This document shows, one piece after another, positions 38,163 through 54,237 of a stretch of 64,000 nucleotides of DNA. Numbering within the stretch: position 1 is the stretch's first letter; the number at the start of each line of letters is the position of its first letter. The DNA comes from Streptomyces leeuwenhoekii. Its GTDB lineage: Bacteria > Actinomycetota > Actinomycetes > Streptomycetales > Streptomycetaceae. A program made the translations under genes and the position numbers. The notes beneath the pieces are model-generated. The model saw only the letters and a program-made list of their open reading frames with translations. It was not told the DNA's origin and did not search any database. The stretch is taken from contig NZ_LN831790.1 of the NCBI RefSeq assembly GCF_001013905.1, forward strand, positions 6,896,001-6,960,000, read 5' to 3'.

Positions 38163-38585
38163 ATGTCAGATGCCTTCACCACCCGAGTCCTGAACGTCTC
38201 CACCGGCTCCCAGGAGAGGGTCGTCGACATCACCGGCGACTGCGCGTCCTTCCTGCGCGAGGTGGCGGCCGGCCGCGACGGCCTGCTCAACGTCTTCGTC
38301 CCGCACGCCACGGCCGGGATCGCCGTCATCGAGACGGGCGCGGGCAGCGACGACGACCTCCTGGCCGCCCTGCACACCCTCCTGCCGGCCGACGACCGCT
38401 GGCAGCACCGCCACGGCAGCCCCGGCCACGGCCGCGACCACGTCCTGCCGGCCATCGTCCCCCCGCACGCCACCCTGCCGGTCGTGGACGGGCGGCTGGA
38501 ACTGGGGACGTGGCAGTCGGTGTGCCTGGTGGACACCAACCGGGACAACCCCGACCGGCAGGTGCGGTTGTCGTTCCTCGGGTAG
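38163..38585 (+). CDS. YjbQ-family (UPF0047) protein
   Basis: A protein of 140 residues with all UPF0047 features: GLLNVFVPHATAGIAVIE, the HRHGSPGHGRDHVLPAIVPPHATLPVVDGRLELGTWQSVCLVDTN region and a conserved histidine cluster. The E. coli homologue complements thiamine-phosphate synthase mutants, so a weak thiamine-phosphate synthase or other metabolite-repair role is suggested by family only. The ATG at 38163 is preferred over an in-frame ATG at 38154. Confidence 0.92.
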   Translation: MSDAFTTRVLNVSTGSQERVVDITGDCASFLREVAAGRDGLLNVFVPHATAGIAVIETGAGSDDDLLAALHTLLPADDRWQHRHGSPGHGRDHVLPAIVPPHATLPVVDGRLELGTWQSVCLVDTNRDNPDRQVRLSFLG

Positions 38586-38638
38586 GGCCGTGTCTGCCGG
38601 CACCGCGGGAGCGACTTCCCGTCGCACCGAACGAGACA

Positions 38639-38670
38639 CCGCCTGGAGCGGCCGTGGCCGCTCCAGGCGG
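38639..38670 (+). terminator. Strong hairpin after the YjbQ gene
   Basis: Perfect 15-bp arms (38639-38653 and 38656-38670) are separated by 2 nt, 53 nt after the stop. It is one of the strongest hairpins in the window and marks the left edge of the accessory region. Confidence 0.8.
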
Positions 38671-39196
38671 CGGTGCTTCCCGCCGGGGCATGGCCACAGT
38701 CGGACCGGAGCCCCACCGTGCTCGGGGACTGGCCTCCACCACACCGAGCAGTGTGCTCACGTCTGGCGGAGACCGGTCGACGCGACTGGCTGACCGCGTA
38801 GCCGACCCGGGCCACGAAGCCCCAGGAAGGGGCAGGTCCGAAGTGAGGAGCGGCCCTCCCTGGGGCGGATGTTCGGCCAGAGAGCCCACCACGAGTGGAA
38901 GCCACGGCAGCTCTTCGACGAGCGGCGTTCCGAGCCCTTCGGTGGTGCCGGAGGTTGGCGCACTCGTTCGCCCGCTGAAGGGGCGGGCCGGTCCCCGTCG
39001 CCCACGGCATCCGACTTCACCAGCTCCCCCAGGGGGGGCGATGAGGCGGGCGCTGTCCCTGTGGTCGTCCCAGGCCGGCAACCCGGCATCGCACAGTCGC
39101 CGTAAGGCCTGATCGTCGTCCAGCAGGGGGCGAAGCTGTTGCAGGACCGTCGGGGCGAATGCCGACTCTTGCGCAAGGCTCGCGGGGGCATGCCAC

Positions 39197-39218
39197 GCTT
39201 CGTCCGGCCGGACGAAGC
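39197..39218. repeat. 22-bp perfect palindrome
   Basis: GCTTCGTCCGG followed directly by its reverse complement, with no loop, lies in the degenerate region. It could be a relic of an element end, an operator or a hairpin. No partner copy was noticed elsewhere in the window. Confidence 0.6.
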
Positions 39219-39229
39219 AGACGATGCCG

Positions 39230-39310
39230 CCACGCCCTCGCGGCGCTGCCACGCCGCCGCCCCGGCCATGCGATCGCCGACAAGGCATACAGCTCTCGCG
39301 GCTTCGTTCC
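39230..39310 (+). pseudogene. Fragment of an IS5-type DDE transposase
   Basis: The translation at 39267-39305 reads HAIADKAYSSRGF, which matches the conserved D-K-A-Y-S-S-R block around the second catalytic Asp in IS5-superfamily transposases. An Arg/Pro-rich lead-in like that of relatives precedes it. The frame then runs into unrelated sequence, and no start, remaining catalytic motifs or terminal repeats were found. It is a remnant only. Confidence 0.5.
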
Positions 39311-39342
39311 CGCTCTGGGCAGGGTCCGTTCGAAGGCGGACC

Positions 39343-40861: not shown

Positions 40862-41010
40862 TCAGTGTCCGAGCTCGGCATAGCGCACGACCTGGACCGC
40901 GAGCCCCGCGCCCATCGCCGTCTCCGCGGACGAGACCAGCAACAGCGGCCAGCGCAGCGGTCCGAGCAGCCGACGTACTCGGCGAGCAGAAGTCGGCTGG
41001 TGTCGGTCAC
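40862..41010 (-). pseudogene. Frameshifted small ORF at the end of the operon
   Basis: A GTG at 41010 overlaps the stop of the upstream gene (GTGA), with AAGGA six bases upstream, and starts TDTSRLLLAEYVG. In that frame the rest is Cys/Arg-rich and implausible and runs on to 40819. One frame over, the sequence reads LLGPLRWPLLLVSSAETAMGAGLAVQVVRYAELGH and stops at 40862, with a strong third-position G/C bias. A single-base indel near 40968 would join them into a roughly 50-residue protein with a hydrophobic centre. Decay, sequencing error or programmed frameshifting are all possible. Confidence 0.5.
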
Positions 41011-42221
41011 TTCGGTTCCTTCTCCAGTCGGGCCAGTCGGGCCTCCAAGTCGGTGAGGCCCGTCTTCTCGGCACCGGCGCGGAGCCGGGACAGGTCGGGG
41101 ACCTCCAGGCGCAGTTGGCGTGCCAGGCGGGTGACGAGTTCTTCCGCGTCCTGCCGGGTGACCTGGCGTCGGGCACCGAGGCGCTGATCGAGGCGGTCCA
41201 GCAGGGCGCGCTTGCGTGGCGTCTCCGCCGGGCACCACACACGGAAGAAGCGGGTGCCCGTCACCTGGTAGGTACCGATGCGGGACTCCCGGAGCCCGTT
41301 CTCACCGAAGGCGGAGGAGGGCAGCGAGACCGACCAGGTGCCGTCGTCGTCCCGTTCCGGGGCGACTGCGTCGAGCCCCCGATCCCGCAGCCATTTCCGG
41401 GCGGCCCGCAGGACGCGTTCGTCGGCCTCCTCACTCGTTTCCTCGTTGTCGAGGGCGTTGACCAGCTCTGGAGCCCGGGCACAGACCTCGCTGAGCTCCG
41501 GATCGGGTGCGGTCCCCGCTCTCGCCTGGCCGTAGACGAGGAGTCCGTCCCGGCCGCGCACCACGTAGACCGGCAGGAAGACCAGCTCCTCACCCAGGCT
41601 CTCCAGCGCGTCCAACGCGACGGGCAGATTGAACCGGGCGCGGTCCTCGCGCTCCGCCAAGCGGTCCAGGGCCGAGCGGACGAAACCGGAGGCCGCGAGG
41701 ATCGGTGTGAAGCGCGGATAGCTCTCGCTTCGCAGCACCCGGTCCAACGCGTCGCCGGACAGCAGGGTCACGACCTCTTCGTCGTAGTGGGCCCGGGTGA
41801 GCGGTGTGCAGCTCAGGGCCTCGAAGTACAGCTTGCGGCGGTCCTGATGGGTTACCACGTAGCGGATGTCGTCGTCCACGGAACGCTGCCCCAGTGACGT
41901 CAGGGACAGCCGGCCCCCGGACTCCTCCAGGTGGCCGATGGCCGTCAGGAAACGAGCGGCCTGTGCGACCAGGGCACGGTCCAGGGCGAAGAACGCGGCG
42001 AGTTCGTCGACGCTGTGCAGGGCACCGTGCCGAAGCCCGCGCTCCAGGAAGCGGTCGATGAGGAAGAAGTCCTCGCCTTCGGTGATGTCCGCGCGGATCT
42101 CGACCTGCCACACCGGGAGCAACAGCGCGTAGAGGCGGGTGGGCACCATGCCCTGGCCGAAGGCGGCGTCCTCCAGGACTCGCTCCCCGGGGAAGGGCAT
42201 GAGGCGGGTGCCGGTCGTCAC
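41007..42221 (-). CDS. Unknown winged-helix-like protein of the conflict-system operon
   Basis: A protein of 404 residues that I cannot place in a named family. Residues about 70-135 (FLIDRFLERGLRHGALHSVDELAAFFALDRALVAQAARFLTAIGHLEESGGRLSLTSLGQRS) look like a winged helix. A middle beta-rich region includes GEELVFLPVYVVRGRDGLLVYG, and the C-terminus is a charged helix or coiled coil (TDLEARLARLEKEPK). Its GTG start overlaps the stop of the helicase gene by 4 bp with GGAGGGG upstream, so it is made together with the helicase and probably works with it, perhaps as an adaptor or substrate-recognition subunit. Confidence 0.85.
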   Translation of the reverse strand: MTTGTRLMPFPGERVLEDAAFGQGMVPTRLYALLLPVWQVEIRADITEGEDFFLIDRFLERGLRHGALHSVDELAAFFALDRALVAQAARFLTAIGHLEESGGRLSLTSLGQRSVDDDIRYVVTHQDRRKLYFEALSCTPLTRAHYDEEVVTLLSGDALDRVLRSESYPRFTPILAASGFVRSALDRLAEREDRARFNLPVALDALESLGEELVFLPVYVVRGRDGLLVYGQARAGTAPDPELSEVCARAPELVNALDNEETSEEADERVLRAARKWLRDRGLDAVAPERDDDGTWSVSLPSSAFGENGLRESRIGTYQVTGTRFFRVWCPAETPRKRALLDRLDQRLGARRQVTRQDAEELVTRLARQLRLEVPDLSRLRAGAEKTGLTDLEARLARLEKEPK

Positions 42222-45220
42222 GGTCGACCCCTCCGCGCCGATGGGGGAACCGTTTCGTTCATGTCCGCGGCGGCATGGTCGAGCGCACCCATGACGTCGT
42301 GGAAGTCCCTCAGGTCACCGCGGTCGAGCAGATGCCGGTGCATGGCTTCGGCGAGCGTGCGGAAGCCGGGGTCGTCCGCGTTGAGCAGGCTGCTCAGGTC
42401 GCCGGTCAGTACCAGCTGGCTCTTGGCACGGGCGAAGGCCACGTTGATGCGGCGGAGCTCTTTGAGGAAGCCGATCCGTCCTTCGGGGTTGCTGCGTGTG
42501 AAGCCGTACAGGACGACGTCGCGCTCTCCGCCCTGGTAGGAGTCGACGCTGCCGACCGAGGCGTTCGCGAGTTCGGAGTCGCCGATCAGCGGGGTGAGGC
42601 GGCGGACGACCTCCGAGCGTTGCGCGAGGTAGGGGACGATCACCACCCACTCGCAACCACGCTGGTGGTAAAAGGCGGCGAGCCGGGCGAGGAGGCGTGC
42701 CTCACAGGTGTTGGAGAAGCCCTTGAGGGCTCCGCCCTCGGCGCGGCCTCCCTGCGACTCGCGACGTGTGCGCTCGGGCAGGCGGGAGGTGTCGACAAAG
42801 GCCATCGGGCTTGCGAACAAGGGGTCGGTGTGCCGGTGTTCCTTCTCGGTGAGCAGCCGTCCCGCGTAGAAATGGGCCGAGATGAAATCGGCGATCTCGG
42901 CGGGCATGCGGCGCTGCCGGGTCAACTGGACGACGTGTGAGGAGGGGAGTCCGGCACGCAGCTGCTCCAAGGCGCTCTGCGACGTCAGCCGCAGCAGAAC
43001 GGGGTCGCCTGTCGCCCGGGCCCAGTCGGCGACCTCGGTGTCGAGGAAGGGCGGCAGTTGCCGGTCGTCGCCGACCAGGACACCGCGGCGGACCCGGGTC
43101 AGAGGGACCAGCGCGTCCGCGACGCCGATCTGGCCGGCTTCGTCGACGATGCCCAGGTCGAACTCGACACCGGACAGCTCAGGGCGGGACGCGGCTCCGA
43201 TGCAGGTGGCGCCGATCACTTGGGCGTAGCGGATGAGTTCGGGCACGAGCTGGCCCGGGTCCTGGCCCACGGCGGTCTGCCACTGCCTGGTGAGTTCCTG
43301 ACGCGCGGAGAGAACGGGCAGCCACGCCTGCAGACGTCGACACAGCGTGTGCAGTGCGGCGGCCGCCTCGGTCGGGTCACGCAGGAAATCGGGGGCGGAC
43401 ACGCCCGGTACGACCGTGCCGAGTGCCTGGACGGCCACGCCAGCGGCCTCGTAGGCGGATTGGAGGCTGTCGTCGAGCCGCCGCCGCGCGGACTGACGGG
43501 CGGCCAGGCACGCTCGGACAGCGGGGTCCTCGCGTACCGCGCGGTCCGCCTCGGCCTGCGCTGTCTCGGCCTGCCGGCGCAGTTCAGGACCGAGGGCCTC
43601 CAGCCGCTGCATCTCGGCTCCTACCGCGGTGAGCTCTGCCTCTGCGCGGCGGGCCCTGAAGCGGTGCAGCCGGCCGGTCAACAGACGGTTGGAGCGCTGC
43701 TGCTCGGACTGTACCTTCGCCTGGAGCCGCGAGGCCCGGTCGACCAGTTCCCGCTGGGCCGTATCTCGCTCGTGTTCCTCGTACCGGAGCGCTTCCAGCC
43801 GCTCGCGGGCCGGTGCGGAGGCGGTTTGGATCGCGTCCTGCAGGCGCAGGGCCGCGGCCTTCTCGCTCCGGGCGAGGTCATCGACCTGACCGAGCCGGGA
43901 CGCGAGCTCCGCCGTCCAGTCCGCAGCGGCCGCCGCCTCCCGGTAGGCCCGGGTCCGGTGGGCCATGGCATGCCGGATCCCCTCCGACAGGTTCTCCGAC
44001 TGCTCTTCCAGAAGAAGTGGCCTCACATCGGCATGGACCTTGCTCTCGTCCCCGACACGGATCACCACGAGATCCCTCGGCAGCCGGGCGAGCACGTTGT
44101 CCACGGCGCGGTTGGTGTGGGAGGTGACGAGGACCCTGCCGCCGCCGGTGTCGGTCGTGGTCGCGGTGGTGTGCGCGATCTCGGTGATGGTCCGGGTCTT
44201 GCCGGTACCGGGCGGACCAAGCACCACCAGCAGGTCCTCGGTGGTCAGTGCCTTGCGGAAAGCGTCCAGCTGCTCGGGGTCGAGGCTCTCGTGCGGTTGT
44301 GCGGTCGTCGCCGGGATACCGCGTACACGGTGCTCGACCACGGCCGACAGCAGGTGGGGGTTCCCGGCGTTCCCGGTACGCAGACTCGCCACGGCCTGCC
44401 GCTGTTTGCCGAACACCACGGTGTTCGGAACGAGTTCCAGTGCTCCGCGCTCCGGCAGCCGTTCCCACGACAAGGGCCGGTCGAAGCAGACCGTGACGGT
44501 GCCTTCCGTGACGCGTCTCACCCTGCCACGGGTCTCTGTGTCCCCCTGGACGCGCACGAAGGCGCCGACCGGTGGCAGTGCCGGTCCGACGAGCCGGAAC
44601 TCGTACATCGACTGAGGAGTGCCGCTGCGCCTGCCACCGGTGGTCGTCAGGCTCCGGTACGGGAAGGGGGCGGCCTCGCGCTCTTCGCGGGTGGAGTACT
44701 TTTCGGTCACGTCGATCAGCCGGTCCACGGTGTCGAGGAATTCCGACTGGGCTTCGCTGACGGACGCGGCGTCCGGCCGTGCCCGCGTACGGCTGAGACG
44801 CTGCCAGGCATCCGCAAGGGTTTGCCACTGGGCGTCGGAGCCCTCGGGCACCGCCGTCAGTTCGAACACCATGTGCCAGGCGGGCGGGCGCACCAGCAGG
44901 CAGGACCGGGCGAGGCGTGCGTGATCGGCCAGGCGCAGAGGATCGATGTGCTTGACGAAGTAGCCGGTGCCTCGCTTCGTCGCCTCGAGACGGAGCCGGT
45001 AGGCGCGGGTATGAACCAGCAAGGAGGGCTTGTACTTACTGGTTCCGGGACTGAGACTCACGGCGACACCGCTTGGAAGCTCGTTCAGGTCGTGGACGAT
45101 CTGCGTGACGTCGGGCGGAAGTCCAGCACTCGATCGCGACTTCGTACGGAGCTGTTCGTCCAGCTTGAGTCCTGGGACGAGCACCAGCGGAGCGCGCAGG
45201 ACGACGGTGACGGCGGACAT
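42218..45220 (-). CDS. UPF1/DNA2-like superfamily 1 helicase
   Basis: An SF1 helicase of 1000 residues. A roughly 320-residue N-terminal region with a beta-barrel-like part (about 205-265) precedes motif I, GPPGTGKT (335-342). A long coiled-coil insertion with many Glu/Arg/Ala heptads spans about 430-600. Walker B (GIVDEAGQI), GDDRQLPPF, QRRMPAEIADFIS, VGSVDSYQGGERDVVLYGFTRSN and INVAFARAKSQLVLTGDLS complete the AAA_11/AAA_12 motor. It should unwind RNA or DNA 5' to 3'. It starts 9 bp after the nucleosidase-kinase stop (GAGGAG upstream) and overlaps the next gene by 4 bp. Confidence 0.93.
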   Translation of the reverse strand: MSAVTVVLRAPLVLVPGLKLDEQLRTKSRSSAGLPPDVTQIVHDLNELPSGVAVSLSPGTSKYKPSLLVHTRAYRLRLEATKRGTGYFVKHIDPLRLADHARLARSCLLVRPPAWHMVFELTAVPEGSDAQWQTLADAWQRLSRTRARPDAASVSEAQSEFLDTVDRLIDVTEKYSTREEREAAPFPYRSLTTTGGRRSGTPQSMYEFRLVGPALPPVGAFVRVQGDTETRGRVRRVTEGTVTVCFDRPLSWERLPERGALELVPNTVVFGKQRQAVASLRTGNAGNPHLLSAVVEHRVRGIPATTAQPHESLDPEQLDAFRKALTTEDLLVVLGPPGTGKTRTITEIAHTTATTTDTGGGRVLVTSHTNRAVDNVLARLPRDLVVIRVGDESKVHADVRPLLLEEQSENLSEGIRHAMAHRTRAYREAAAAADWTAELASRLGQVDDLARSEKAAALRLQDAIQTASAPARERLEALRYEEHERDTAQRELVDRASRLQAKVQSEQQRSNRLLTGRLHRFRARRAEAELTAVGAEMQRLEALGPELRRQAETAQAEADRAVREDPAVRACLAARQSARRRLDDSLQSAYEAAGVAVQALGTVVPGVSAPDFLRDPTEAAAALHTLCRRLQAWLPVLSARQELTRQWQTAVGQDPGQLVPELIRYAQVIGATCIGAASRPELSGVEFDLGIVDEAGQIGVADALVPLTRVRRGVLVGDDRQLPPFLDTEVADWARATGDPVLLRLTSQSALEQLRAGLPSSHVVQLTRQRRMPAEIADFISAHFYAGRLLTEKEHRHTDPLFASPMAFVDTSRLPERTRRESQGGRAEGGALKGFSNTCEARLLARLAAFYHQRGCEWVVIVPYLAQRSEVVRRLTPLIGDSELANASVGSVDSYQGGERDVVLYGFTRSNPEGRIGFLKELRRINVAFARAKSQLVLTGDLSSLLNADDPGFRTLAEAMHRHLLDRGDLRDFHDVMGALDHAAADMNETVPPSARRGRP

Positions 45221-45229
45221 CGGCGCTCC

Positions 45230-46963
45230 TCAGCGTTGGGGTGGCGGGACGGAGGCCAGCTCCCGGGCGACGGAGAGCAGGGTGAGGCGGAACGTACGCA
45301 TGCGCGGGCGCTCGCCCGGCTTCTGCCGAAGGGCACCGGTCACCAGACGGACGAGGCTGTCCGGTGCGGAGGAGGACGAGAGGGCTGCGGGAGGCGGCCC
45401 GAAAGCCCCGGGGCCGGGTTCTCGGCCGGTCAACGCGCGGTACAGCAACGCCCCCAACTGGTAGACGTCGGTGGCGGGTCCGGGACGGGCGCCGGAGCCG
45501 TGCCGTTGCTCGGGAGCCTGATAAGGGCCGGGGTTCTCGCCGGGGCGTGGTGGTACGGCGGCGAGACCGAAGTCCCGCAGGAGCATCCGCGGTCGGCCCA
45601 TGACGATCGCGGTCGGTCGCAGTGCCCGGTGCGAGAGATTTTTATCGCCCATCCGTTCGAGGACGGTGGCCACTTCGGCGAGCCCCTTCACGACCGACCA
45701 CAGTCGCAGCGGAGTCGCGGGCGCGGGCGGCTCGGGCAGCAGCTCGTACAGGGTCTGCGCGGGGGAGCCGACCTTCGGGTCGGCGGGCCAGGCCAGGGCG
45801 AGCGTGGCGGTGTTCCCGTCCCGGGTCAGATGGACGACGCCGGGGCCGCCCAAGGCACGGCAGAGCCCCGCTTCCCGCTCGAGCGCGGCCAGAGGGTCGA
45901 AGCCACCGTGCCCGGTGAGCGGCCGTATCCACTCGACCTGGCGCAGCCAGGCGTACGAGCCGCGGGAACCCCGGTCGGGCACACGTACCACCGCCTGCCG
46001 CCGGACCACGTCACCGTCCCGCGACTCCTGGAGGAGGTCGCCGGGGCCTTTGTACAGCAGGTACTCCCGTCCTCCGACGTCGAGGACGCAACGCCTGTCC
46101 CAGGCTTCGGCCGCCGGGCCGTGGTCGGGAGCGGACACCAGGACGACAGCGGGTCCTCGGGGCCGCTCCCGGGCCGGCCGCCCGGCAGGGCGCAGGTCAC
46201 GCAGTACCCGCAGGGCGAAGGCTGCGGCGTGCCGTGCTGCCGTCTCCTGTGATCCGGTGGCGTCGGACGCGGCCTTGCCGGGGCCGGCGTAGTCGCTGAT
46301 GCCGCGGATCGAGAGCATCCGCACCGCGCTGTGCATCCTGGCCGCGTGAGCGACACCGTGGCTCTCCATGTCCACGGCCACGGCGTCGTTGTAGTGGCTG
46401 CGGATGCGGCGGGCGGTCTCGGAGCCACGCGAGCCGATCAGCACATCGCCCGACGCGATCGGCTCGAAGTGGATGCGGGGAAGCGAGGCAGGCCGGGCAT
46501 CCGGCGGGAGGAAGACCCACGGGTCGTTCCGGCGAGCGGAGAGCACCAACTGGCTCACGGGGTGGGTCGGTTCCCAGACGTCGGGCCGGGCCTGGAACCC
46601 GTCCGTGCTCTCGCGGCCCCCGTGGTAGCCGTAGACCTTCCGGGCGACGACGACGTCCCCGAGACGGACGTCGTCCTTGACCGCACCGGCGACGCCGACG
46701 AAGAGCAGCGCGTCCGCGTCGAAGTACTCGATCGTGGACTGTGTGATCAGCGCCGCACGGGTATTGGTGGGACCCGTTTCGGCCAGCGCCACTTCCCAGT
46801 CGAGCCCGGGTATCCGGCCGACGTCGAGCAGGGTGCCCTGCGGCAGTTCGACCTCACGGACATCCGCCAGATGGCGATGCACCGCCTCGTGTTCCACCCG
46901 CAGGGCAGTGAGCACCACCACCGTGGGCCGCCGCCCCCTCGCCCGCCCCAATGGACCCCCCAC
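45230..46963 (-). CDS. Nucleosidase (PNP/MTAN-like)-pseudokinase fusion
   Basis: A two-domain protein of 577 residues. Residues about 13-260 form a PNP_UDP_1 nucleoside phosphorylase/nucleosidase-like domain: VGVAGAVKDDVRLGDVVVA (about 89-107), AVDMESHGVAH (Glu199) and RGISDYAGPGK (Asp224) correspond to its active site. Residues about 285-575 are a Ser/Thr-kinase fold with DFGLAA, APEQ and DVYQLGALLYRALTGREP, but the catalytic loop is HRALRP rather than HRD, so the catalytic Asp is Ala. The kinase part is thus probably a non-catalytic sensor or scaffold, the nucleosidase a potential NAD- or nucleoside-degrading effector. GTG start; a TTG at 46951 is an alternative. Confidence 0.88.
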   Translation of the reverse strand: MGGPLGRARGRRPTVVVLTALRVEHEAVHRHLADVREVELPQGTLLDVGRIPGLDWEVALAETGPTNTRAALITQSTIEYFDADALLFVGVAGAVKDDVRLGDVVVARKVYGYHGGRESTDGFQARPDVWEPTHPVSQLVLSARRNDPWVFLPPDARPASLPRIHFEPIASGDVLIGSRGSETARRIRSHYNDAVAVDMESHGVAHAARMHSAVRMLSIRGISDYAGPGKAASDATGSQETAARHAAAFALRVLRDLRPAGRPARERPRGPAVVLVSAPDHGPAAEAWDRRCVLDVGGREYLLYKGPGDLLQESRDGDVVRRQAVVRVPDRGSRGSYAWLRQVEWIRPLTGHGGFDPLAALEREAGLCRALGGPGVVHLTRDGNTATLALAWPADPKVGSPAQTLYELLPEPPAPATPLRLWSVVKGLAEVATVLERMGDKNLSHRALRPTAIVMGRPRMLLRDFGLAAVPPRPGENPGPYQAPEQRHGSGARPGPATDVYQLGALLYRALTGREPGPGAFGPPPAALSSSSAPDSLVRLVTGALRQKPGERPRMRTFRLTLLSVARELASVPPPQR

Positions 46964-47241
46964 GTAGTCGTGACGTGCGACCTGACCTCACGACTCCTGC
47001 CGGTGCTTCGGCTCGGCAGCACGGAGCGGAGCGGAGGAAGGGATCATTTTAGCCTGACGACTCCGAGCGGATCCGGTGGTCGTCGGCACGTTCCGAAGCG
47101 GCGGACCGACCATGTTGTGCCTCCCCGTGCCTGGCGGTCGCTCCGTCCGCTGCGGCCGTCCCGCGTGGGGATGGCCACAGCACCGGACCGATGAGTGTGC
47201 AGTGACCGGTTCGCCGCCTGTGAGGCCCTGTGCGCCTCGGC
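46964..47241 (-). promoter_or_regulatory. 278-bp gap with a possible internal promoter
   Basis: This is the only large gap in the operon. On the minus strand TAAAAT (47046-47051) is a good -10-like hexamer in an unusually AT-rich patch about 80 nt before the nucleosidase start. No good -35 lies at 17-18 bp. The effector half may have its own promoter. Confidence 0.35.
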
Positions 47242-50200
47242 TCACCCGCCGACGGCGCAGCGGCTCACCTCGCCCAGCGACAGTGCCAGGAGTCCGTGGT
47301 CGAGCCCGACGATCAGACGCCGTGCCACCCAGGTGACGGCGAGCGCGGGATGATGTACGGGAATCTCCTCGACCAGCGCTCGGGCCGCCACGTCCCACAG
47401 CCGCACGGTCCGGTCACTGCCGGCGGTGGCGAGGAGGGGCCCGCCCTCACCGACCACGCTCACCGCGTTGACCGCGCCCGTGTGACCGGAGAGCTCTCCG
47501 ACGAGTTCGCCCCGCTCGGCGTCCCACAAGCGCACCCTGCCGTGCGCGTGCGCGGTGGCGAGAGCGGTCCGCCCGGCCACCGGCAGCGTGCACATCGCGA
47601 AAGTCTCGCTCGCCGCGGCCAACCTGTGGTGCCGACCGGAGACCACGTCCCACAGCCAGACCGCGCCGTCCAGCCCGTCCGTGGCCGTGGCGACGTACGG
47701 CCGGCCGGAAAGCTCCACACCACACATGGCGTAGATGCCGCTGGGGAAGCGCAAGAAGCGCGCGGTCTCGCCGGTGAGCGGGTCCCACAGCCATGCGCTG
47801 CCGTCGGTGTGGCCCACAGCCAGCAGTGTCCGGTCGTCCACGTGCACGGAGCACATGGTGTAAGCGGGTCTGCTGCCTCGGCGCCGGGACCGGGGCGAGG
47901 TGTCCCCGGGGCTCCACAGCCACGCCTCCCCGTCGTCACCGCAGCCGGCGAGGTACGGCCGGCCGAGGTGGCGCGGGGAACACAGGGCGCGCACCCAGTC
48001 GCGGTTGCCCTGCAACGTGCCGACCACGGTGCCGGAAGCGGGATCGCGAAGCTCGGTGACGCCGTCGTCGCCTCCGGCGGCCACCAGCACACCGTCGCCG
48101 CTGTACGCGGGGGAGAGGGCGCGGACCGCGCTCACCCGGCTGGCGCGCGGCGCCGCCGGGTCCCACAGCCGCACGGTGTGGTCGGCGCCGCCACTGGCGA
48201 GCAGATCCCGGCCGTTGACGCGCAGGACGCAGAGGGAGTCCACGGAGTCGGAGTGGCCTTGGAGGGTGATGGCGATCCGTCCGGTCTCGGGATCCAGCAG
48301 CCGGACCAGATCGCCGCTCGTGCCGGCGAGCAGCGAGCGCCCCTCGGTCGTGACGGCGCACAGCGTGAAGGCCAGATCCTCACCGGGGAGGGTGCCCACG
48401 CACCAGTCGCCGGCCGGCCCCCACAGCCGAACGGTTCTGTCCGCGCCCAGACTGGCCAGCAGGGTCTGCCCGGCCACCTGCACGGTGCACAGGGCGACGA
48501 TGGAACCCTCGTGTCCCTCCAGGACGCGGACGCGTTCGCCGGTGTCGGGACGCCAAAGAATGACGGAGCCGTCCTGTTCGTCCCCGCCCGAGGCCAGGAG
48601 GGTCTCGCCGGCGACCGCCACCGCGCACACACTCTCGACCCAGCCGCCGTGTCCCGGAAGAACCAGGGTGCACTCCCCGGCGGCGGGATCCCAGACACGG
48701 ACCGTCCCGTCCGCGCCGGCGGTCGCGAGGCGGGGGCCGTCGGCCGTGTCGAACGCGCAGATGTCGCGAATCGAGCTGAGGTGGCCGCTCAGGTGTCCCG
48801 CGGCGCGCTGCCGGGATTCGTTCCACAGCCAGACGTCGCTGTCCGCGGCGACAGCGAGGTACGTCTGCCCGTCGACGATCAGGCCGCACATCGCCCTGAT
48901 GCGGCCGAACCGGGGTGTGAGGCGTCGCACCGTGCGGGCGGTGACCGGGTCCCACAGCCGCACGGTCCCGTCGCCGGAGGCGCTGGCGAGCAGGGTGTGG
49001 GACGCGGGGCCGAGGGCGCACACGGATCGGATCTCGGCGCTGTGGCCCTCCAGGACGGCCTCTTCGGCGCGTGGGGCGACCGCCGCCCAGTCGGCTCGGT
49101 ACGGCCCTTCGGCCGCCAGGGGCCCGTAGAACTGGCCGAACCCTTCCTGCGTCTCGGTCACGCTGAAGAGGGCCGCACGCCGGGCGGGTTCGCGGTCGAT
49201 GGCCTGCGGCGTCCGGCGAAGGACCTGGGCGCGTTCCCTCGCCGCCCCGGAGAGCGCCGCACCGCTCGCCGGGATGAGGCGCCGCAGATCCGCGTGGAGC
49301 GCGTACTCCGCCTCCGCGAGCAGCTCGTCGACGACGCGTCCGCCGACGGCGTGGCGGGGCAGCGAGCGCAGCAGGTACACCGGCGCACGCTCCCAGCCGA
49401 GCCGTCGGCCGTAGGCGATGAAGCAACGGGTGAGGGCACGCTCGTCGGTCACGTTCGAGCCGAGCCGGGCGCGGTTCTTCCGCAGCGCGTCGTTGAGGGC
49501 CTGGTGGAAGAGCCGGAACACGCCGGTGTTCTGGTCGTTGACGCCGGTCTCGACGAGGAAGTTCGCAGCCGACGAGCGCGCCAGGGTCCGCAGTCGCTCC
49601 TCGGTGAGGTGATGGCCCGTGAGCCGTTCCACCGCGGCGCTCCACAGCGGCAGCGGGAGCCCCGGTGCCTCGGCGTAGGCCAGCACGCTCAGGGCATCGG
49701 CCGCGGGAGCGCCGTCGACGGCAGGCAGCCGTGCGAGGTAGTCCTGCAGAGCCGCGGCGACCGTGGGGGTGAAGGCGATGTCAGCGGGCGCGACCGCGTG
49801 GGTGTCGTGCAGGCCGTGACCGCGCGCGGTGAGCCCGGCCACGAGGAAGTTGCCGTCGGCCAGTTCGGCGATGCGGGCAGCGACCGGGCGTGCGGTGTGC
49901 TCGTCGCCGTAAGGATTGTCGGGCCGCTCGTCGCCCAGGAGTCGCAGCGTGGCCATCGTGTACGCGGTGAGGTCCGCCGCGGCGAAGAACTCGGGGGCGT
50001 CGAGGTCGATGACGCGGGCCGCTGTGCCGAACGAGTCGAGCAGACTGCCGGCATCGTCCCTGCGGCGGCTGCCGACCACCACCCTGACGTTGAGATCCGC
50101 GCAGGTCTCCGCCAGAGGGAGGGCGATGTGCCGTGCGATCAGGCGGGCCTGCTGCGCGCTGGTGGCCTCGTCGAGGGCGTCGATGACCACGACGAACGGC

Positions 50201-51321
50201 CTGTCCGCGGAAGCGGGCCGCTCGGACAGCGTGGTCCGCAGCACGGAGGCCAGGTCGCTGGTGCGCTCGGGTGGCGCGGCCGAGGCCGCGGTGGCGATCT
50301 CCTTGGCCACCTCCAGAGCGGTCTTTCCCTTCGCGTGCACGGCGCAGGAGACCGAGCCGAGGGGGGCACGCAGGGCGTCGTCGTCCGCCGGGAGCAGCGC
50401 GGCGATACCGGGATCCGCCGAGGTGACCACACGGCCGAGCACCGCGGACTTGCCCACGCCGGGCGACCCGGTCACCAGCAGTACCTTGCGCGGCGCGGCC
50501 GCGGAGGTCATCCAGCCGATCATTTCGGTGAGCGCGGCGGTACGGCCCCGGAAGCGGAAGCCCTGTTCGGCGTCCGTGCTCACGCCGCGTGCGCGCGGCT
50601 TCCAGTGCCGGCTGGCTTCCGGGTCGTCGTCCAGAGACCAGCCCCACGCCGCGAGCGCCGTTTCGCCCGCCGCCTCGGCCGACCAGTCGGTGAGCAGCGC
50701 GATCTTCTGGTCGGGCAGACACTTGTCGGCCTGATAGAGCGTCAAGGCCCGGGCGTCGCCCGAACCACTGGCCTGCCCGACCAGGCCCACGACCGCCTGG
50801 TACGTCGGCGACCACAAGGCGGCGCCGCTGTAACCGGGTCTGACGGGATAGCGCGAGGACGTGTCGAGCCGCACCCAGCCGTAAGCGAGCGACTCGCCGA
50901 CCGTCCCGTCCGACGAGTTGCCGAACAGATCGCCGTCGGGGAACCCGAAGGCCCACCACGGCTCGCCCACGAGTGCGGACGGCGTCGGCCGCCGCAGCCG
51001 GGCCGCGGGCTCACCGGAGACCGGCTCCGCGAGCAGGAGGACGGCCACGTCCTGCGCACGGCGCTTCGCCGGGGTCTGCGGCGCCAACACCTCCCGTACC
51101 CGGAAGCGCCGCTCCATGAACTGGTCCGACTTGGGGAACGCCACCCACAGCTCACGCGTCTTCTCCCATGTGGGGCAGGCGACATGCGCGCACGTCAGTA
51201 CCCGGTGTTCATCGATGAGGAAGCCGGAACCCAGCGCCGTCTCGTCGTGCTCCGTGCCGTGTGCCGCGGCCACCCAGGCATCGGTGCCCGGGCGCGGGCC
51301 CGAGCCGGCAGCGGCGTTCAT
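47242..51321 (-). CDS. Trypsin-like protease-NTPase-WD40 signalling protein
   Basis: A protein of 1359 residues. Residues about 10-210 are a trypsin-like serine protease with an apparently complete triad: His46 (LTCAHVAC), Asp91 (QDVAVLLL) and Ser165 (PGYSGAALW). Residues about 250-560 are a STAND-type P-loop NTPase with Walker A GSPGVGKS (285-292) and Walker B FVVVIDALDEAT (Asp381/Asp384). A helical linker leads to about 14 WD40-like repeats (DGTVRLWD type, about 735-1355), enough for two propellers. Trypsin-STAND-WD40 proteins are sensor-switch-effector modules of NTP-dependent conflict systems: the propellers sense, the NTPase oligomerises, the protease cuts a target. It starts 6 bp after the Trypco1 stop. 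Confidence 0.93.
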   Translation of the reverse strand: MNAAAGSGPRPGTDAWVAAAHGTEHDETALGSGFLIDEHRVLTCAHVACPTWEKTRELWVAFPKSDQFMERRFRVREVLAPQTPAKRRAQDVAVLLLAEPVSGEPAARLRRPTPSALVGEPWWAFGFPDGDLFGNSSDGTVGESLAYGWVRLDTSSRYPVRPGYSGAALWSPTYQAVVGLVGQASGSGDARALTLYQADKCLPDQKIALLTDWSAEAAGETALAAWGWSLDDDPEASRHWKPRARGVSTDAEQGFRFRGRTAALTEMIGWMTSAAAPRKVLLVTGSPGVGKSAVLGRVVTSADPGIAALLPADDDALRAPLGSVSCAVHAKGKTALEVAKEIATAASAAPPERTSDLASVLRTTLSERPASADRPFVVVIDALDEATSAQQARLIARHIALPLAETCADLNVRVVVGSRRRDDAGSLLDSFGTAARVIDLDAPEFFAAADLTAYTMATLRLLGDERPDNPYGDEHTARPVAARIAELADGNFLVAGLTARGHGLHDTHAVAPADIAFTPTVAAALQDYLARLPAVDGAPAADALSVLAYAEAPGLPLPLWSAAVERLTGHHLTEERLRTLARSSAANFLVETGVNDQNTGVFRLFHQALNDALRKNRARLGSNVTDERALTRCFIAYGRRLGWERAPVYLLRSLPRHAVGGRVVDELLAEAEYALHADLRRLIPASGAALSGAARERAQVLRRTPQAIDREPARRAALFSVTETQEGFGQFYGPLAAEGPYRADWAAVAPRAEEAVLEGHSAEIRSVCALGPASHTLLASASGDGTVRLWDPVTARTVRRLTPRFGRIRAMCGLIVDGQTYLAVAADSDVWLWNESRQRAAGHLSGHLSSIRDICAFDTADGPRLATAGADGTVRVWDPAAGECTLVLPGHGGWVESVCAVAVAGETLLASGGDEQDGSVILWRPDTGERVRVLEGHEGSIVALCTVQVAGQTLLASLGADRTVRLWGPAGDWCVGTLPGEDLAFTLCAVTTEGRSLLAGTSGDLVRLLDPETGRIAITLQGHSDSVDSLCVLRVNGRDLLASGGADHTVRLWDPAAPRASRVSAVRALSPAYSGDGVLVAAGGDDGVTELRDPASGTVVGTLQGNRDWVRALCSPRHLGRPYLAGCGDDGEAWLWSPGDTSPRSRRRGSRPAYTMCSVHVDDRTLLAVGHTDGSAWLWDPLTGETARFLRFPSGIYAMCGVELSGRPYVATATDGLDGAVWLWDVVSGRHHRLAAASETFAMCTLPVAGRTALATAHAHGRVRLWDAERGELVGELSGHTGAVNAVSVVGEGGPLLATAGSDRTVRLWDVAARALVEEIPVHHPALAVTWVARRLIVGLDHGLLALSLGEVSRCAVGG

Positions 51322-51327
51322 CGAGGC

Positions 51328-51639
51328 TCAGGCCCCGTCCGCCGCCGCAGGACGCCACACCAGCGACACCTCGAAGTTGGCGTCCGTAGAGGCCTTGGCG
51401 ACCAGCCAGTTGGCCGTCCCGGTGACCTTGACACCGAACGTCACCTGGACTTCCACGGGGCGGAGCGCCACCGCCTGGTCGAGTACCGCTCGGGCGGCCT
51501 CCACGGCAGGGCGTACGGCTTCGCGGACCTGGCCCGCGATCTCCCCGGCGCCCACCTGATGGAACTCGCTTGTCGGCTCGATCTCGAACCGGACGACCGT
51601 TTCGTCGTCCAGCGCGTACGACACCACCTGATGTGCCAT
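51328..51639 (-). CDS. Trypco1 (CU044_2847 family) trypsin-co-occurring protein
   Basis: A small single-domain protein of 103 residues beginning MAHQVVSYALDDETVVRFEIEP, with AGEIAGQVREAVRPAVEAARAVLDQ and VEVQVTFGVKVTGTANWLVAKASTDANFEVSLVW. This matches, from memory, the CU044_2847/Trypco1 domain, named because it occurs next to trypsin-like proteases in actinobacterial and other conflict systems. Its likely role is as partner, inhibitor or substrate of the adjacent protease. It heads the operon and is followed after 6 bp by the protease-NTPase-WD40 gene. The ribosome site (GGGGGG) is weak. Confidence 0.87.
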   Translation of the reverse strand: MAHQVVSYALDDETVVRFEIEPTSEFHQVGAGEIAGQVREAVRPAVEAARAVLDQAVALRPVEVQVTFGVKVTGTANWLVAKASTDANFEVSLVWRPAAADGA

Positions 51640-51811
51640 CGCGGCCCCCCGGCTGCAGAGTGAGATCACAGCTTAGAGCCAACCCGTCGCCGCGGACGAG
51701 CAGTTCGGTCCTCGCCGTCCTCGCCGGGGAAGGCGCGGTGACTCGCCCGGCAGCAGTACGGCAGGCCGTGGCAGGAGCCGCTGCCACTTGAGCGCTCGTG
51801 CGCAAACGCCG

Positions 51812-53296
51812 TCAGGACGGCACGGCCGGGCAGCCTGCGCCCCGTGGTGGGACTGTCAGGTCTATGAGATAGCCGTCCACGGCCTCCTCCATGCACGGGC
51901 CGCTGGTGACACTGCCGTGCCCCTGGCCCTCGTAGGTGAGGAGCACGCCGCTGCGGCCGAGCTGCCGGGCCACCGAGACCGCCCACGGGTAGCCTGTGGC
52001 GGGGTCGTGCAGCGCGTTGGCCAGCAGGATCGGCGCCGCACCGGGTGCGTCCAGGCGGTGCTGCGGATTGGTGGCCGGCGCTCCCAGACACGCCGCCGCC
52101 ATATGGATGGGCAGCAGATGCGGCAGGTCGGGCGCGGTCCTGTGCATCATGACGACGAGCGAGGCGTACTCCTGGTAGTCGCGCACGGGCAGGTGCCAGT
52201 CCGAGCAGAAGACCGGGGTGGCCGCAGGCAGCGGCGCTGTCGAGGTGGGTGACGCGGGCATGGGCCTGCTCGCGTCCATCCCCGCGATCTCCCTGGCCAA
52301 GCCCGCGTAGTCGGCCTTGTAGAACCTCCGGAACGCGATCTTGTTGACCAGGTCCGAGGACGACAGCGTGGAGCCCGGCTTCGCCGGGTCCTCCAGCTCG
52401 CCGCGCCCGGCCCGGGCCAACAGGCCCTGCCAGACGGCGCGGACGTCGCGGCCGTGCAGTGCGCAGTCCGCGGTACCGTCGCACCACTTCACGAACTCCT
52501 GGAAGGAGTCCTCCGCCGCGGCCGCCCCGGACCGCAGGAAGTCACGGGTGGTCGGGACGCTGTGGTCCATGACGCTTTCCAGGACGATCGCGCGTACACG
52601 ACGCGGGTACGTCTCGGCGTACTGCGCGCCGAGCAGCGTGCCGTACGAGCTGCCGTGGAAGGTCAGACTCCGCTCGCCGAGGGCGGCCCGCAGGGCGTCC
52701 AGGTCCCGGACCGTCTGGGCGGTGTCGAGATGGTCGAAGACCGGGCCGGTACGGGCCCGGCAGTCGGCGCGGAGGCGCCTGTTGTACGCCAGGGTGGCGT
52801 CGAAGTCCGCCTGGCTCTTCAGCTCGGGTGACGGCCGCTGCGCGAGCAGGTCGCTGGAGCAGGCACCGGGTTGCTGCCGCCCACGCCGCGCGGGTCGAAG
52901 CTGACGATGTCGAACCTGCGGCGGACCTCCGGGCTGAACCGGCTGATACGGTCCACCACCATCTCCACACCCGGAGTCGCCCGGCCCGCCGGGGCCGAAC
53001 ACCATCGAGCCGATACGTGCGCCGGGGTCGGTGGCCTTGCGGCGGGCCACGGCCAGGTCGAGTCCCGGCCCGTCCGGGTGCGCCCGGTCGACCGGCACCG
53101 ACAGAGTGGCGCACTCGGCTCCCGGCGGTGCCGGGTCGTCACACGGCGCCCAGCGCAGGGCCGCGGTGACGGACGACGACGCGTGGACGGCGGGCGTGGC
53201 GGCGAGGCCGGTGACGACGGCCATGGCGGCTCCCACGGCCATGGCCGTGCCCCGCGCGACGTGGCGCCGCGGTAAGGATCTGCCCCTGAGCGGCAT
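51812..53296 (-). CDS. Secreted S33-type alpha/beta-hydrolase peptidase with two compensating frameshifts
   Basis: An exported tripeptidyl-aminopeptidase-like protein (SlpD/SlpE/TAP group) of 494 residues. A signal peptide (about 1-39), nucleophile Ser217 in HGSSYGTLLGAQYAE, the acid in NALHDPATGYPW and His in YEGQGHGS are intact, as is the TAP-like C-terminal domain. Residues about 110-145 are nonsense, because the proper family sequence (VEMVVDRISRFSPEVRRRFDIVSFDPRGVGGSNPVP) lies in another frame between about 52969 and 52862. A +1 event and a later -1 event keep the gene open. It may be inactive, or the two indels may be sequence errors. GAGGAGG precedes the ATG. Confidence 0.85.
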   Translation of the reverse strand: MPLRGRSLPRRHVARGTAMAVGAAMAVVTGLAATPAVHASSSVTAALRWAPCDDPAPPGAECATLSVPVDRAHPDGPGLDLAVARRKATDPGARIGSMVFGPGGPGDSGCGDGGGPYQPVQPGGPPQVRHRQLRPARRGRQQPGACSSDLLAQRPSPELKSQADFDATLAYNRRLRADCRARTGPVFDHLDTAQTVRDLDALRAALGERSLTFHGSSYGTLLGAQYAETYPRRVRAIVLESVMDHSVPTTRDFLRSGAAAAEDSFQEFVKWCDGTADCALHGRDVRAVWQGLLARAGRGELEDPAKPGSTLSSSDLVNKIAFRRFYKADYAGLAREIAGMDASRPMPASPTSTAPLPAATPVFCSDWHLPVRDYQEYASLVVMMHRTAPDLPHLLPIHMAAACLGAPATNPQHRLDAPGAAPILLANALHDPATGYPWAVSVARQLGRSGVLLTYEGQGHGSVTSGPCMEEAVDGYLIDLTVPPRGAGCPAVPS

Positions 53297-53469
53297 GGGT
53301 CCTCCTCATGAGGGGGAAGCGGGTGTGTCAGGCGTGTGGACCCGCCCGGGGCACCGTCCTCACGGTAGGCGCACTGCCGCTCACACGACGCTCCTGTCAG
53401 GGACATCTCCGGGGCGGATCGGGGGTCGCTCAGGGGCGATTCGGGTGCGTGAAGTTCACTGTCAGGTGA

Positions 53470-53913
53470 TCAGGTGGGAATTCTTTCGGGTGCCACCCCG
53501 CGGATCAGGGAATCAATGGCCTCCGGCCATGGGCCGAAGCGGGCGATCCAGTCGGCAACGAGGTAGATCACTCCTTGTTCATCCATACCAAGGAAAAAGC
53601 GTTCGGAGTCCAGCTCTCCGATCGGAAAGAGCTGAACGCCCAGTTCTTCGCCCCAGCCGGAGAACCTTTCCTCCTCTCCAAGGCAGAGGTGGGGGTCGAG
53701 TGCAAAGGGCTCGCGTGCGCAGTTGACACCTGGGCCTGTGACTGCGATATCGAGACCGCCGAATCGGGCAAGGAAATGCCGTACTTCCTGAGAGGCGGAG
53801 ATCCCGCGTTCCTCGAACGAGCGTGTCCAGGGCGCTGGGTCGACAGCGCGCTCGGGGAACCAGCCGAAGGACTGGAGTACGCCGGCGACATCCGGAGAGA
53901 ATCGGGCTTCCAT
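53470..53913 (-). CDS. SUKH-3 family immunity-like protein
   Basis: A protein of 147 residues matching the SUKH-3 domain: FGGLDIAVTGPGV, EPFALDPHLCLGEEERF, WGEELGVQLFPIGELDSERFFLGMDEQGVIYLVADWIARFG and PWPEAIDSLIRG. SUKH proteins are immunity factors against polymorphic or contact-dependent toxins. No toxin, WXG100 or RHS gene is nearby, so it is an orphan. The gene is visibly lower in GC than its neighbours, a sign of recent acquisition. GGAG lies six bases before the ATG. Confidence 0.9.
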   Translation of the reverse strand: MEARFSPDVAGVLQSFGWFPERAVDPAPWTRSFEERGISASQEVRHFLARFGGLDIAVTGPGVNCAREPFALDPHLCLGEEERFSGWGEELGVQLFPIGELDSERFFLGMDEQGVIYLVADWIARFGPWPEAIDSLIRGVAPERIPT

Positions 53914-54237
53914 CTTGATCTCCTATGACGGAGTCCATTCCGTGAGGGCAGACCTTCCTCGGCCAGCCCGGCGGCCATGGCCGCCGGGCGCGAGGGGCGC
54001 CGGGGCGCGAGGGGCGCGGCCACCTTACGGGCACGCGCTCGGGTGGCGGGGGCCGGCTGTCGTGCCCCCGCCCGCGTGCGGGACCGGAGGGCGGCGGCCG
54101 GGCGTAAGATCAGCGCAATACCGCAGGTCGGAGGCGTTTTTGCCGGTGCTTGTCCCGCCGGGCGGAGCGTCCCTGGAGGCTCGGCGGCGGTCGGTTTCGA
54201 GCGGTGTGTGAGACACGTGGGGGAGGAGCGGGGCGCC
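53914..54237. other. 324-bp divergent intergenic region
   Basis: It separates the SUKH-3 and HIRAN genes, which face away from each other. No gene is seen. The segment GTAAGATCAGCGCAATAC near 54104 is the only AT-richer patch and may hold the HIRAN gene's -10. Confidence 0.45.

What the first reader, a model, noticed from the sequence alone, without database searches (positions are those of the whole stretch)
40862..51639. Six-gene Trypco / protease-STAND-WD40 / nucleosidase-pseudokinase / UPF1-helicase operon
All genes are on the minus strand, with gaps of 6 bp, 278 bp and 9 bp, then two 4-bp overlaps. The N-terminal pair (Trypco1 plus trypsin-NTPase-WD40) is a recognised hallmark of NTP-dependent conflict systems. 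The additions are unusual: a nucleosidase fused to a kinase lacking its catalytic Asp, a 1000-residue SF1 helicase, a winged-helix-like protein of unknown family and a small terminal ORF. A workable model is that the WD40 propellers or the helicase sense foreign nucleic acid or infection. The NTPase then oligomerises and frees the protease, and cleavage unleashes the nucleosidase to deplete NAD or nucleosides. The surrounding region looks like an island.
Basis: partly seen in the sequence, partly recalled or inferred. Interest (0 to 1): 0.9.

Follow-up and report, generated by a model that had tools for sequence, protein, structure and literature searches.

The report
Mokosh-like defence operon with nucleosidase effector
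Three neighbouring genes in a soil bacterium look like a variant of the Mokosh anti-phage system in which the usual nuclease is missing and a nucleoside-cleaving enzyme sits on a dead kinase instead; relatives carry other death-type domains in the same place, so one sensor seems to have been wired to different weapons.

Summary
The genes and spacings are real, but they are not one six-gene operon. The conserved unit is nucleosidase-pseudokinase (45230-46963), SF1 helicase (42218-45220) and MkoB-like protein (41007-42221). Trypco1 plus protease-STAND-WD40 is a separate module: absent from 33 of 33 related loci and from the same site in two relatives. The sixth 'ORF' is a broken remnant of a membrane-protein gene. 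The helicase matches PADLOC MkoA (E=4e-101), the kinase half the N-terminal part of that profile, and the 404-aa protein MkoB (E=1.5e-10), N-domain only. It is Mokosh-related, but fused kinase, catalytic Asp and PLD nuclease, features of type I, are not met. In 52 non-duplicate loci with this helicase-MkoB pair, a kinase-like domain (49 of 52) carries PNP (16), SEFIR (15), an amyloid-type motif (13), TIR (3) or a BTAD association (2). Best model: helicase and MkoB sense infection, the pseudokinase couples, the exchanged N-terminal domain acts; here by cleaving an adenine nucleoside or nucleotide. Defence, trigger, substrate and coupling are inferred. No structure was predicted: the machine stayed busy.

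The parts
45230..46963 (-). Nucleosidase (PNP_UDP_1, MTAN-like) fused to a pseudokinase; core gene 1 (proposed effector + coupling domain)
   Evidence: Pfam PNP_UDP_1 15-254 E=9.5e-26; PDB MTA/SAH nucleosidases E=2.8e-20 with the profile of A2; Glu24, Glu200, Asp224 invariant in 17 of 17 rows; HRD Asp replaced by Ala447; kinase part matches MkoA profile 117-283, E=2.2e-11
42218..45220 (-). SF1 UPF1-like helicase, MkoA-type but without the fused kinase; core gene 2 (proposed sensor)
   Evidence: PADLOC MkoA PDLC03920 E=4.3e-101, residues 41-962 vs profile 326-1099; Walker A GPPGTGKT, VDEAG and QGGERDVV motifs present; control: the only other match to the helicase part of that profile in the own genome scores 55+51 bits against 387 for the window's two genes together
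41007..42221 (-). MkoB-like protein, winged-helix-like N-domain (by likeness of profiles only), no recognisable PLD nuclease; core gene 3
   Evidence: PADLOC MkoB E=1.5e-10 over residues 32-269 only; no Pfam match; hhalign of A1 with four canonical MkoB: probability 94.6, N-domain only; HxKxxxxD motif in 0 of 26 rows of A1; no PDB relative at E<0.35
40862..41010 (-).
   Evidence: N-terminal letters at 41010 and C-terminal 42 residues at 40996-40871, 67% identity, in another frame; full-length in 7 of 13 Streptomyces loci L010-L022
47242..51321 (-). Trypsin-like protease-STAND-WD40 protein: separate module, not part of the core
   Evidence: Trypsin_2, AAA_16, WD40; absent in 33 of 33 loci; absent at the same site in S. 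harenosi and S. fumanus
51328..51639 (-). Trypco1: partner of the protease, separate module
   Evidence: PF19493 E=6e-17; 5 of 5 nearest relatives sit beside protease-STAND; none of the 4 with downstream DNA held sits beside the core

Best explanation
The core is a three-gene, Mokosh-derived defence unit. Shown by sequence: the helicase and the N-domain of the 404-aa protein are homologues of Mokosh MkoA and MkoB; the kinase domain that canonical MkoA carries at its N-terminus sits here on a separate gene, has lost its catalytic Asp and is fused to a nucleosidase whose catalytic positions are kept; the PLD nuclease of MkoB has no recognisable counterpart. Inferred: helicase plus MkoB-like protein bind an infection signal (probably phage RNA or an RNA-protein complex); the pseudokinase, held by the helicase complex, restrains or clusters the nucleosidase; on sensing, ATP-driven rearrangement releases or oligomerises it; it then cleaves the N-glycosidic bond of an adenine nucleoside or nucleotide (ATP or a related pool is my guess), stopping growth before phage release. 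Relatives carry SEFIR, TIR or an amyloid-type motif at the same place, which suggests that the effector is exchangeable and the pseudokinase is the adaptor.
For: MkoA/MkoB matches with own-genome comparison and canonical comparators L077, L104, L105, L106. Adjacency: 30 of 31 loci with a near-full MkoB-like protein have the helicase beside it. The kinase-like domain lies upstream of the helicase in 49 of 52 non-duplicate loci. N-terminal classes: PNP 16, SEFIR 15 (one, L034, frame-broken), amyloid-type motif 13 (by eye), TIR 3, BTAD association 2; classes are clustered on the helicase tree, 7 changes against a shuffled mean of 32.6. PNPs on this pseudokinase fall in several places among PNPs of other proteins; starred branches force at least 3 changes. 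PNP catalytic positions invariant in 17 of 17; kinase HRD Asp absent in 17 of 17 rows of A2 and 14 of 14 family kinase ORFs, and in 17 of 18 non-duplicate rows. HxKxxxxD, seen in 3 of 4 canonical MkoB, is in 0 of 26 rows of A1. Patchy distribution.
Against: No phage assay. No relative was confirmed in viral contigs and the MkoB-like protein had no plasmid match, so spread by such elements is not seen there. The MkoA profile alone is unspecific: 13 of 14 control genomes ring at E<=0.001, and other kinases of the own genome score up to 131 bits on it, so the kinase link to MkoA is weaker than the helicase link. One TIR-kinase (L184) keeps HRD. Three loci (L024, L042, L186) show no family kinase. 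In the careful tree of 40 rows the PNP class is not one group (2 changes; one group in 2% of bootstrap trees). The PLD loss rests on sequence only: of four canonical MkoB only one Pfam PLD match exceeds the curated cut-off, two are just below it and one (L104) has none. Substrate and trigger untested.
Confidence: 0.6

Rival explanations
1. The operon is in essence Mokosh type I with a split MkoA: helicase plus MkoB destroy phage nucleic acid themselves, and the PNP-kinase is only a regulator or a source of a second messenger.
For: Helicase and MkoB N-domain are homologous to Mokosh; the MkoA profile runs through both window genes, which lie in one reading frame with one TGA between; Kaur et al. 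2020 (PMC7159879, passages) suggest PNP-type domains may generate a second messenger.
Against: The MkoB-like protein lacks a recognisable PLD nuclease; the kinase is inactive by motif; domains of unlike fold (PNP, SEFIR/TIR) replace each other at the same place, which a mere regulator would not need.
Confidence: 0.18
2. It is not a defence system but an RNA-surveillance or stress unit in which the nucleosidase tunes nucleotide pools.
For: UPF1-like helicases serve RNA quality control in eukaryotes (recalled); the core lies at the same site, by both flanks, in the window, S. harenosi and S. fumanus, and shares the left flank in L013, L014 and L015, so it is not visibly mobile there; no relative in viral contigs or plasmids.
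Against: Patchy presence (8 of 297); exchange of death-type domains; similarity to MkoA/MkoB and bSEFIR defence models.
Confidence: 0.14
3. One reading: one six-gene cascade in which the protease cleaves and unleashes the nucleosidase.
For: Same strand and adjacency in the window.
Against: Protease pair absent in 33 of 33 loci and 26 of 26 further fetched loci, 7 of them repeats; absent at the same site in S. harenosi and S. fumanus; found without the core in 4 of 4 informative relatives.
Confidence: 0.03

Closest known systems
Mokosh type I (MkoA kinase-helicase + MkoB with PLD)
   Same: Homologous SF1 helicase with its preceding region, kinase fold related to that of MkoA, homologous MkoB N-domain, helicase-MkoB gene order with overlapping ends (4 bp in the window and in L104, L105; longer in L077, L106)
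   Different: Kinase on its own gene, fused to PNP, HRD lost; no recognisable PLD on MkoB; a fourth membrane-protein gene in some PNP-type relatives
PNP-type immune effectors (Cap17, Detocs and others; Rousset 2023 as cited in PMC10952713, passages seen)
   Same: PNP_UDP_1 domain in a multi-domain immune protein; that paper's table gives degradation of (d)ATP/cell death
   Different: Closest solved sequences are MTA/SAH nucleosidases; (d)ATP cleavage untested here; partnered with a pseudokinase and a Mokosh-like helicase
bSEFIR and TIR defence proteins
   Same: SEFIR (PADLOC bSEFIR E=1.9e-28 in L033, 2e-21 in L025) and TIR_2 (3 of 3) stand in the place of PNP in relatives
   Different: Here they are N-terminal to the kinase-like domain beside the same helicase-MkoB pair
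Trypco1/trypsin conflict systems (Kaur 2020, PMC7159879, passages)
   Same: Trypco1 beside a trypsin-like protease fused to STAND and WD40: the neighbouring module in the window
   Different: Not part of the core; present or absent independently

Membership tests
Mokosh type I | MkoA-type SF1 (UPF1-like) helicase | tested here: met
   PADLOC MkoA E=4.3e-101; own-genome comparison
Mokosh type I | Kinase fused to the helicase in one protein | tested here: not met
   Separate genes in the window; one protein of 1137-1155 aa in 4 of 4 canonical comparators (kinase by Pfam in the 3 scanned)
Mokosh type I | Catalytically competent kinase (HRD) | tested here: not met
   Ala447 in place of Asp; HRD present in 4 of 4 comparators, absent in 17 of 17 rows of A2
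Mokosh type I | MkoB N-terminal domain | tested here: met
   PADLOC MkoB E=1.5e-10, residues 32-269; hhalign probability 94.6
Mokosh type I | PLD nuclease on MkoB | tested here: not met
   No Pfam or PADLOC match over the C-terminal part; HxKxxxxD in 0 of 26 rows. Comparators: Pfam PLD match in 3 of 4, above cut-off in 1. Sequence only; no structure
Mokosh type I | NERD domain (listed for Mokosh type I in PMC10952713) | tested here: not met
   No Pfam NERD match among the families shown for the three core proteins; none shown either for the comparators scanned, so it may not be defining
Mokosh type I | Helicase and MkoB genes adjacent in operon | tested here: met
   4-bp overlap in the window; adjacent in 30 of 31 loci
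Mokosh type I | Anti-phage activity | not testable with these tools
   needs bench work
PNP/MTAN nucleosidase effector | Intact nucleosidase catalytic positions | tested here: met
   Glu24, Glu200, Asp224 invariant in 17 of 17 and aligned to solved MTA/SAH nucleosidases; their catalytic role is recalled from E. coli MTAN
PNP/MTAN nucleosidase effector | Cleaves (d)ATP on infection | not testable with these tools
   no assay
Trypco conflict system (for the whole six-gene locus) | Trypco-protease pair conserved beside the core genes | tested here: not met
   0 of 33 loci, 0 of 26; absent at the syntenic site in two species
Amyloid-signalling (BASS3/RHIM-like) module in relatives | Shared motif on a neighbouring or cognate effector | tested here: inconclusive
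   Motif shared with NB-ARC proteins of the same genomes, 4 of 4 large proteins scanned; no cognate effector identified; membership in BASS3 is by eye; the window gave no match to the motif pattern

The most novel reading that the evidence does not exclude
An effector-agnostic immune chassis: one Mokosh-derived helicase-MkoB sensor reads infection and a (mostly dead) kinase domain plugs it into unrelated outputs: nucleosidase, SEFIR, TIR, or an RHIM-like amyloid motif shared with NLR-type proteins of the same genomes. If so, the helicase and MkoB's N-domain are the sensor in Mokosh generally, and the PLD nuclease is just one of several replaceable effectors.
Probability: 0.45. Interest if true: 0.78.

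Novelty: new variant of a known kind. Interest (0 to 1): 0.64.

Why it matters
In the passages I read, the division of labour in Mokosh (who senses, who kills, what the kinase is for) is not explained. A natural series in which helicase and MkoB N-domain stay while the killing domain changes and the kinase decays makes that testable: swap PNP, SEFIR and TIR on one chassis. It would also join helicase sensing to NLR-type amyloid signalling in actinobacteria.

Tried and rejected
Six-gene cascade: rejected by neighbourhoods and synteny. Alignment A1 was too diverse for the search for related loci; the tighter A3 worked. Mobility: viral contigs gave 13 pattern matches but no confirmed relative; the MkoB-like protein had no plasmid match. 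PADLOC MkoB alone is an unspecific search model, because its PLD half hits many proteins (91 of 296 genomes; 8 of 14 control genomes ring); PADLOC MkoA likewise (13 of 14 ring). Of the matches only three N-domain ones were fetched; one (L077) became a canonical comparator, L078 and L079 were not pursued. Of 19 plasmid records with a distant relative of the helicase three were opened. Avs1b similarity of the protease is weak (E=4e-5) and was not followed. A cognate amyloid effector was not found. PDB search for the MkoB-like family gave nothing below E=0.35. Papers: in the listings of searches (titles and starts of abstracts) I saw no description of a Mokosh-like helicase with nucleosidase, SEFIR or pseudokinase; only open-licence papers are held, the listings were capped, and DefenseFinder's Mokosh subtypes (recalled) could not be checked. 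One search did not list the original Rousset 2023 paper; searches served motif and Trypco background. Passages only were read of PMC10952713, PMC11291487, PMC7159879, PMC8195603, PMC8086366, PMC12839542 and PMC10013915; none was read whole.

L162 and L163 are near-copies and both are counted. In one search, 38 of 297 genomes matched, 33 of them long; 7 of the 33 were in hand, 26 were fetched, the five short matches were not. SEFIR by Pfam: L023, L025, L033, L039 and L161 above cut-off, L038 below it, L182 no match; the other eight or L034 assignments and L182 rest on my own profile built from five of these domains. HRD counts: A2 rows come from the protein database and may overlap with the loci, so the counts are given apart; L028 was in none of them. 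In the PNP tree the label 'oth' includes one fragment (P0191). One search read a wrong output column and printed no rows; one search repeated the reading.

Full report
WHERE IT IS. The window lies at 6.896-6.960 Mb of a 7.9-Mb contig in an 8.12-Mb genome; its 404-aa protein is 98% identical to one of Streptomyces leeuwenhoekii. No tRNA was found in the window. G+C of the three-gene core is 0.706, against 0.728-0.737 in the four other stretches measured.

OBSERVATION.

TWO MODULES, NOT ONE. The genome-contig scan returned 33 loci with a relative of the 404-aa protein. None of the 33 has Trypco1, the protease or its STAND part within the DNA held (tblastn, E<=1e-5; about 5.2 kb upstream of PNP in the Streptomyces loci), nor have the 26 loci, 7 of them repeats (E<=1e-4). 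In contrast, 13 of 13 Streptomyces loci L010-L022 carry PNP-kinase, helicase and MkoB-like gene in the same order; a further Streptomyces locus (L040) holds only fragments. Trypco1 relatives occur in 87 of 150 genomes of the genus; the five nearest were fetched, all five sit beside protease-STAND, and none of the four with downstream DNA held (5.8-8.1 kb) has the core; in L103 the contig ends there. In S. harenosi the core lies at the same chromosomal site: window 40976-47091 and 54075 onwards are collinear at about 90-92% identity, and window 47092-54074 (both Trypco-module genes and an alpha/beta-hydrolase gene) is replaced by about 300 bp; in S. fumanus window 41007-47077 and 55769 onwards are about 95 bp apart.

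WHAT THE CORE IS. The helicase matches PADLOC MkoA at E=4.3e-101 over residues 41-962 (profile 326-1099); the kinase half of the PNP protein matches the same profile at 117-283 (E=2.2e-11); the 404-aa protein matches MkoB at E=1.5e-10 over residues 32-269. In a search of the whole genome the MkoA profile runs from the kinase through the helicase across the gene boundary (387 bits, one TGA inside, the two genes sharing a reading frame), while the only other match to its helicase part gets 55+51 bits and other kinases at most 131; at E<=0.001 the profile rings in 13 of 14 control genomes, so a bare hit means little. Four canonical pairs served as comparators: one Streptomyces-genus genome (L077), and plasmids of Agrobacterium, Oscillatoria and Streptomyces (L104-L106). 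There MkoA is one protein of 1137-1155 aa with HRD in 4 of 4; MkoB has 465-503 aa, a Pfam PLD match in 3 of 4 (above cut-off in 1) and HxKxxxxD in 3 of 4. The window's system differs in three defining points: kinase on its own gene, HRD Asp lost, no recognisable PLD (HxKxxxxD in 0 of 26 relatives). [quoted passage not shown]

INDEPENDENT SIGN OF AN OPERON. In five named genomes the locus tags of PNP-kinase, MkoB-like and membrane protein are spaced as in a four-gene row (for example ACOBQB_12980, _12990, _12995; ABZ746_17595, _17605, _17610; also ACH4VR, AB0I22, ACFU99).

THE NUCLEOSIDASE. The PNP domain is closest among solved sequences to MTA/SAH nucleosidases (E=2.8e-20), with Glu24, Glu200 and Asp224 invariant in 17 of 17 relatives; that these are the catalytic positions is recalled from E. 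coli MTAN. Substrate: unknown; an adenine nucleoside or nucleotide is inferred. PMC10952713 (passages) lists PNP domains of other defence systems with degradation of (d)ATP.

EXCHANGEABLE N-TERMINAL DOMAINS. After removing re-fetched copies, 52 loci have helicase and MkoB-like gene side by side: the window, 30, L080 and L084, and 19 of the 26 fetched. Upstream of the helicase a kinase-like domain of this family is found in 49. Its N-terminal partner is PNP in 16, SEFIR in 15 (in L034 the frame is broken), a short region with a motif of the type HGxVxGxVVQAGxIxGDVHxH (by eye) in 13, TIR in 3, and a BTAD protein in 2 (fused in L029, separate gene in L031); L024, L042 and L186 show no such kinase. 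Pfam confirms SEFIR in five of the seven SEFIR proteins scanned, L038 is below cut-off and L182 has no match; the rest are by my own profile. On the helicase tree the 52 form one group against the 4 canonical MkoA, and the classes are clustered: TIR 3 (SH-aLRT 99), SEFIR 15 (92), BTAD 2 (100), short-motif 13 plus L042 (100), PNP 16 (76; 14 of them 100); 7 changes in all against a shuffled mean of 32.6 (quick method, no bootstrap; long branches join the two halves). In the earlier careful tree of 40 rows PNP is not one group (2 changes; one group in 2% of bootstrap trees). A tree of the PNP domains puts those on the pseudokinase in several places among PNPs of other proteins; well-supported branches force at least 3 changes, which may be one gain and two losses. 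So exchange took place a handful of times, not at every locus.

THE DEAD KINASE. HRD Asp is absent in 17 of 17 rows of A2 (Ala 11, Cys 2, Leu, Asn, Glu, His), in 14 of 14 family kinase ORFs (a fifteenth row, from L024, is an unrelated kinase), and in 17 of 18 non-duplicate rows. The exception, L184, is a TIR-kinase in the group that branches first from MkoA; degeneration may have been gradual.

PAIRED SEFIR AND AMYLOID-TYPE MOTIF. Of 14 SEFIR-kinase loci scanned (5 of them re-fetched), 13 have a second SEFIR ORF transcribed the other way beside it; L168 (=L033) has none. The short-motif kinases share their motif with larger proteins of the same genomes; 4 of 4 scanned are NB-ARC proteins. PMC8086366 (passages) describes BASS3 as RHIM-like; that our motif belongs there is my reading, not a test. 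The window has no such motif by the pattern used.

A FOURTH GENE. A 175-aa protein, called integral membrane protein in some records, directly follows the MkoB-like gene in 7 of 13 Streptomyces loci (L012, L013, L016, L018-L021), is broken in L010, and was not found in five (L011, L014, L015, L017, L022); L080 has it upstream of PNP, L084 lacks it. It was not found at E<=0.1 in L023-L042 or L161-L186. In the window only its two ends remain. It may belong to the PNP effector rather than to the chassis.

DISTRIBUTION. 8 of 297 genomes of the family (own genome and one fragment included); in a phylum sample of 396 the own genome plus four weak short hits; 38 of 297 in the family of an Actinophytocola genome, 33 of them long. 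No confirmed relative in viral contigs; no plasmid match of the MkoB-like protein; distant relatives of the helicase, canonical MkoA in the three opened, occur on 19 plasmid records.

MECHANISM. Shown by sequence: homology, domain exchange, loss of kinase and PLD motifs, kept nucleosidase and helicase motifs. Inferred: sensing of phage RNA, restraint and release by the pseudokinase, nucleotide cleavage, abortive outcome. PMC11291487 (passages) states that Mokosh degrades foreign viral transcripts, citing other work; I did not see the primary data.

VERDICT. A real, recurrent, Mokosh-related operon with exchanged effector; new variant of a known kind.

Noticed in passing
window 47092-54074: Segment with Trypco1, protease-STAND-WD40 and an alpha/beta-hydrolase gene is absent at the same site in S. 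harenosi (about 300 bp instead) and in S. fumanus.
   Followed up: yes
window 38585-39337 against L010: S. harenosi holds about 5.3 kb between the stretches that match these points of the window: another place of gain or loss beside the core.
   Followed up: no
L161, L162, L163, L165, L166, L169, L173, L175, L177, L179, L180, L181, L182: A second, divergently transcribed SEFIR ORF lies beside the SEFIR-kinase gene; in L161 a third one, past MkoB, is fused to NPCBM.
   Followed up: partly
L184:6691-8058: TIR-kinase that keeps the HRD Asp while its relatives lost it.
   Followed up: partly
L026, L027, L028, L030, L032, L035, L036, L164, L167, L170-L172, L174: Kinase N-termini with an RHIM-like motif; NB-ARC proteins with the same motif lie elsewhere in the genomes that were searched (those of L026-L036); cognate effector not found.
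   Followed up: partly
L013:11212-11739: Small membrane-protein family (723 matches, best 120 listed) beside PNP-kinase operons; one record shares a contig length with a PNP protein outside this family (14424 bases, P0233 and P0317), so it may travel with PNP effectors in general.
   Followed up: partly
L037: MkoB-like gene without the helicase, next to large NTPase-like and SEFIR/TIR-like ORFs (judged by eye): perhaps a further reuse of the MkoB domain.
   Followed up: no
L182:13284-13802: A PNP-like ORF reaches the end of the fetched stretch about 4.4 kb from the second SEFIR gene of a SEFIR-kinase locus.
   Followed up: no
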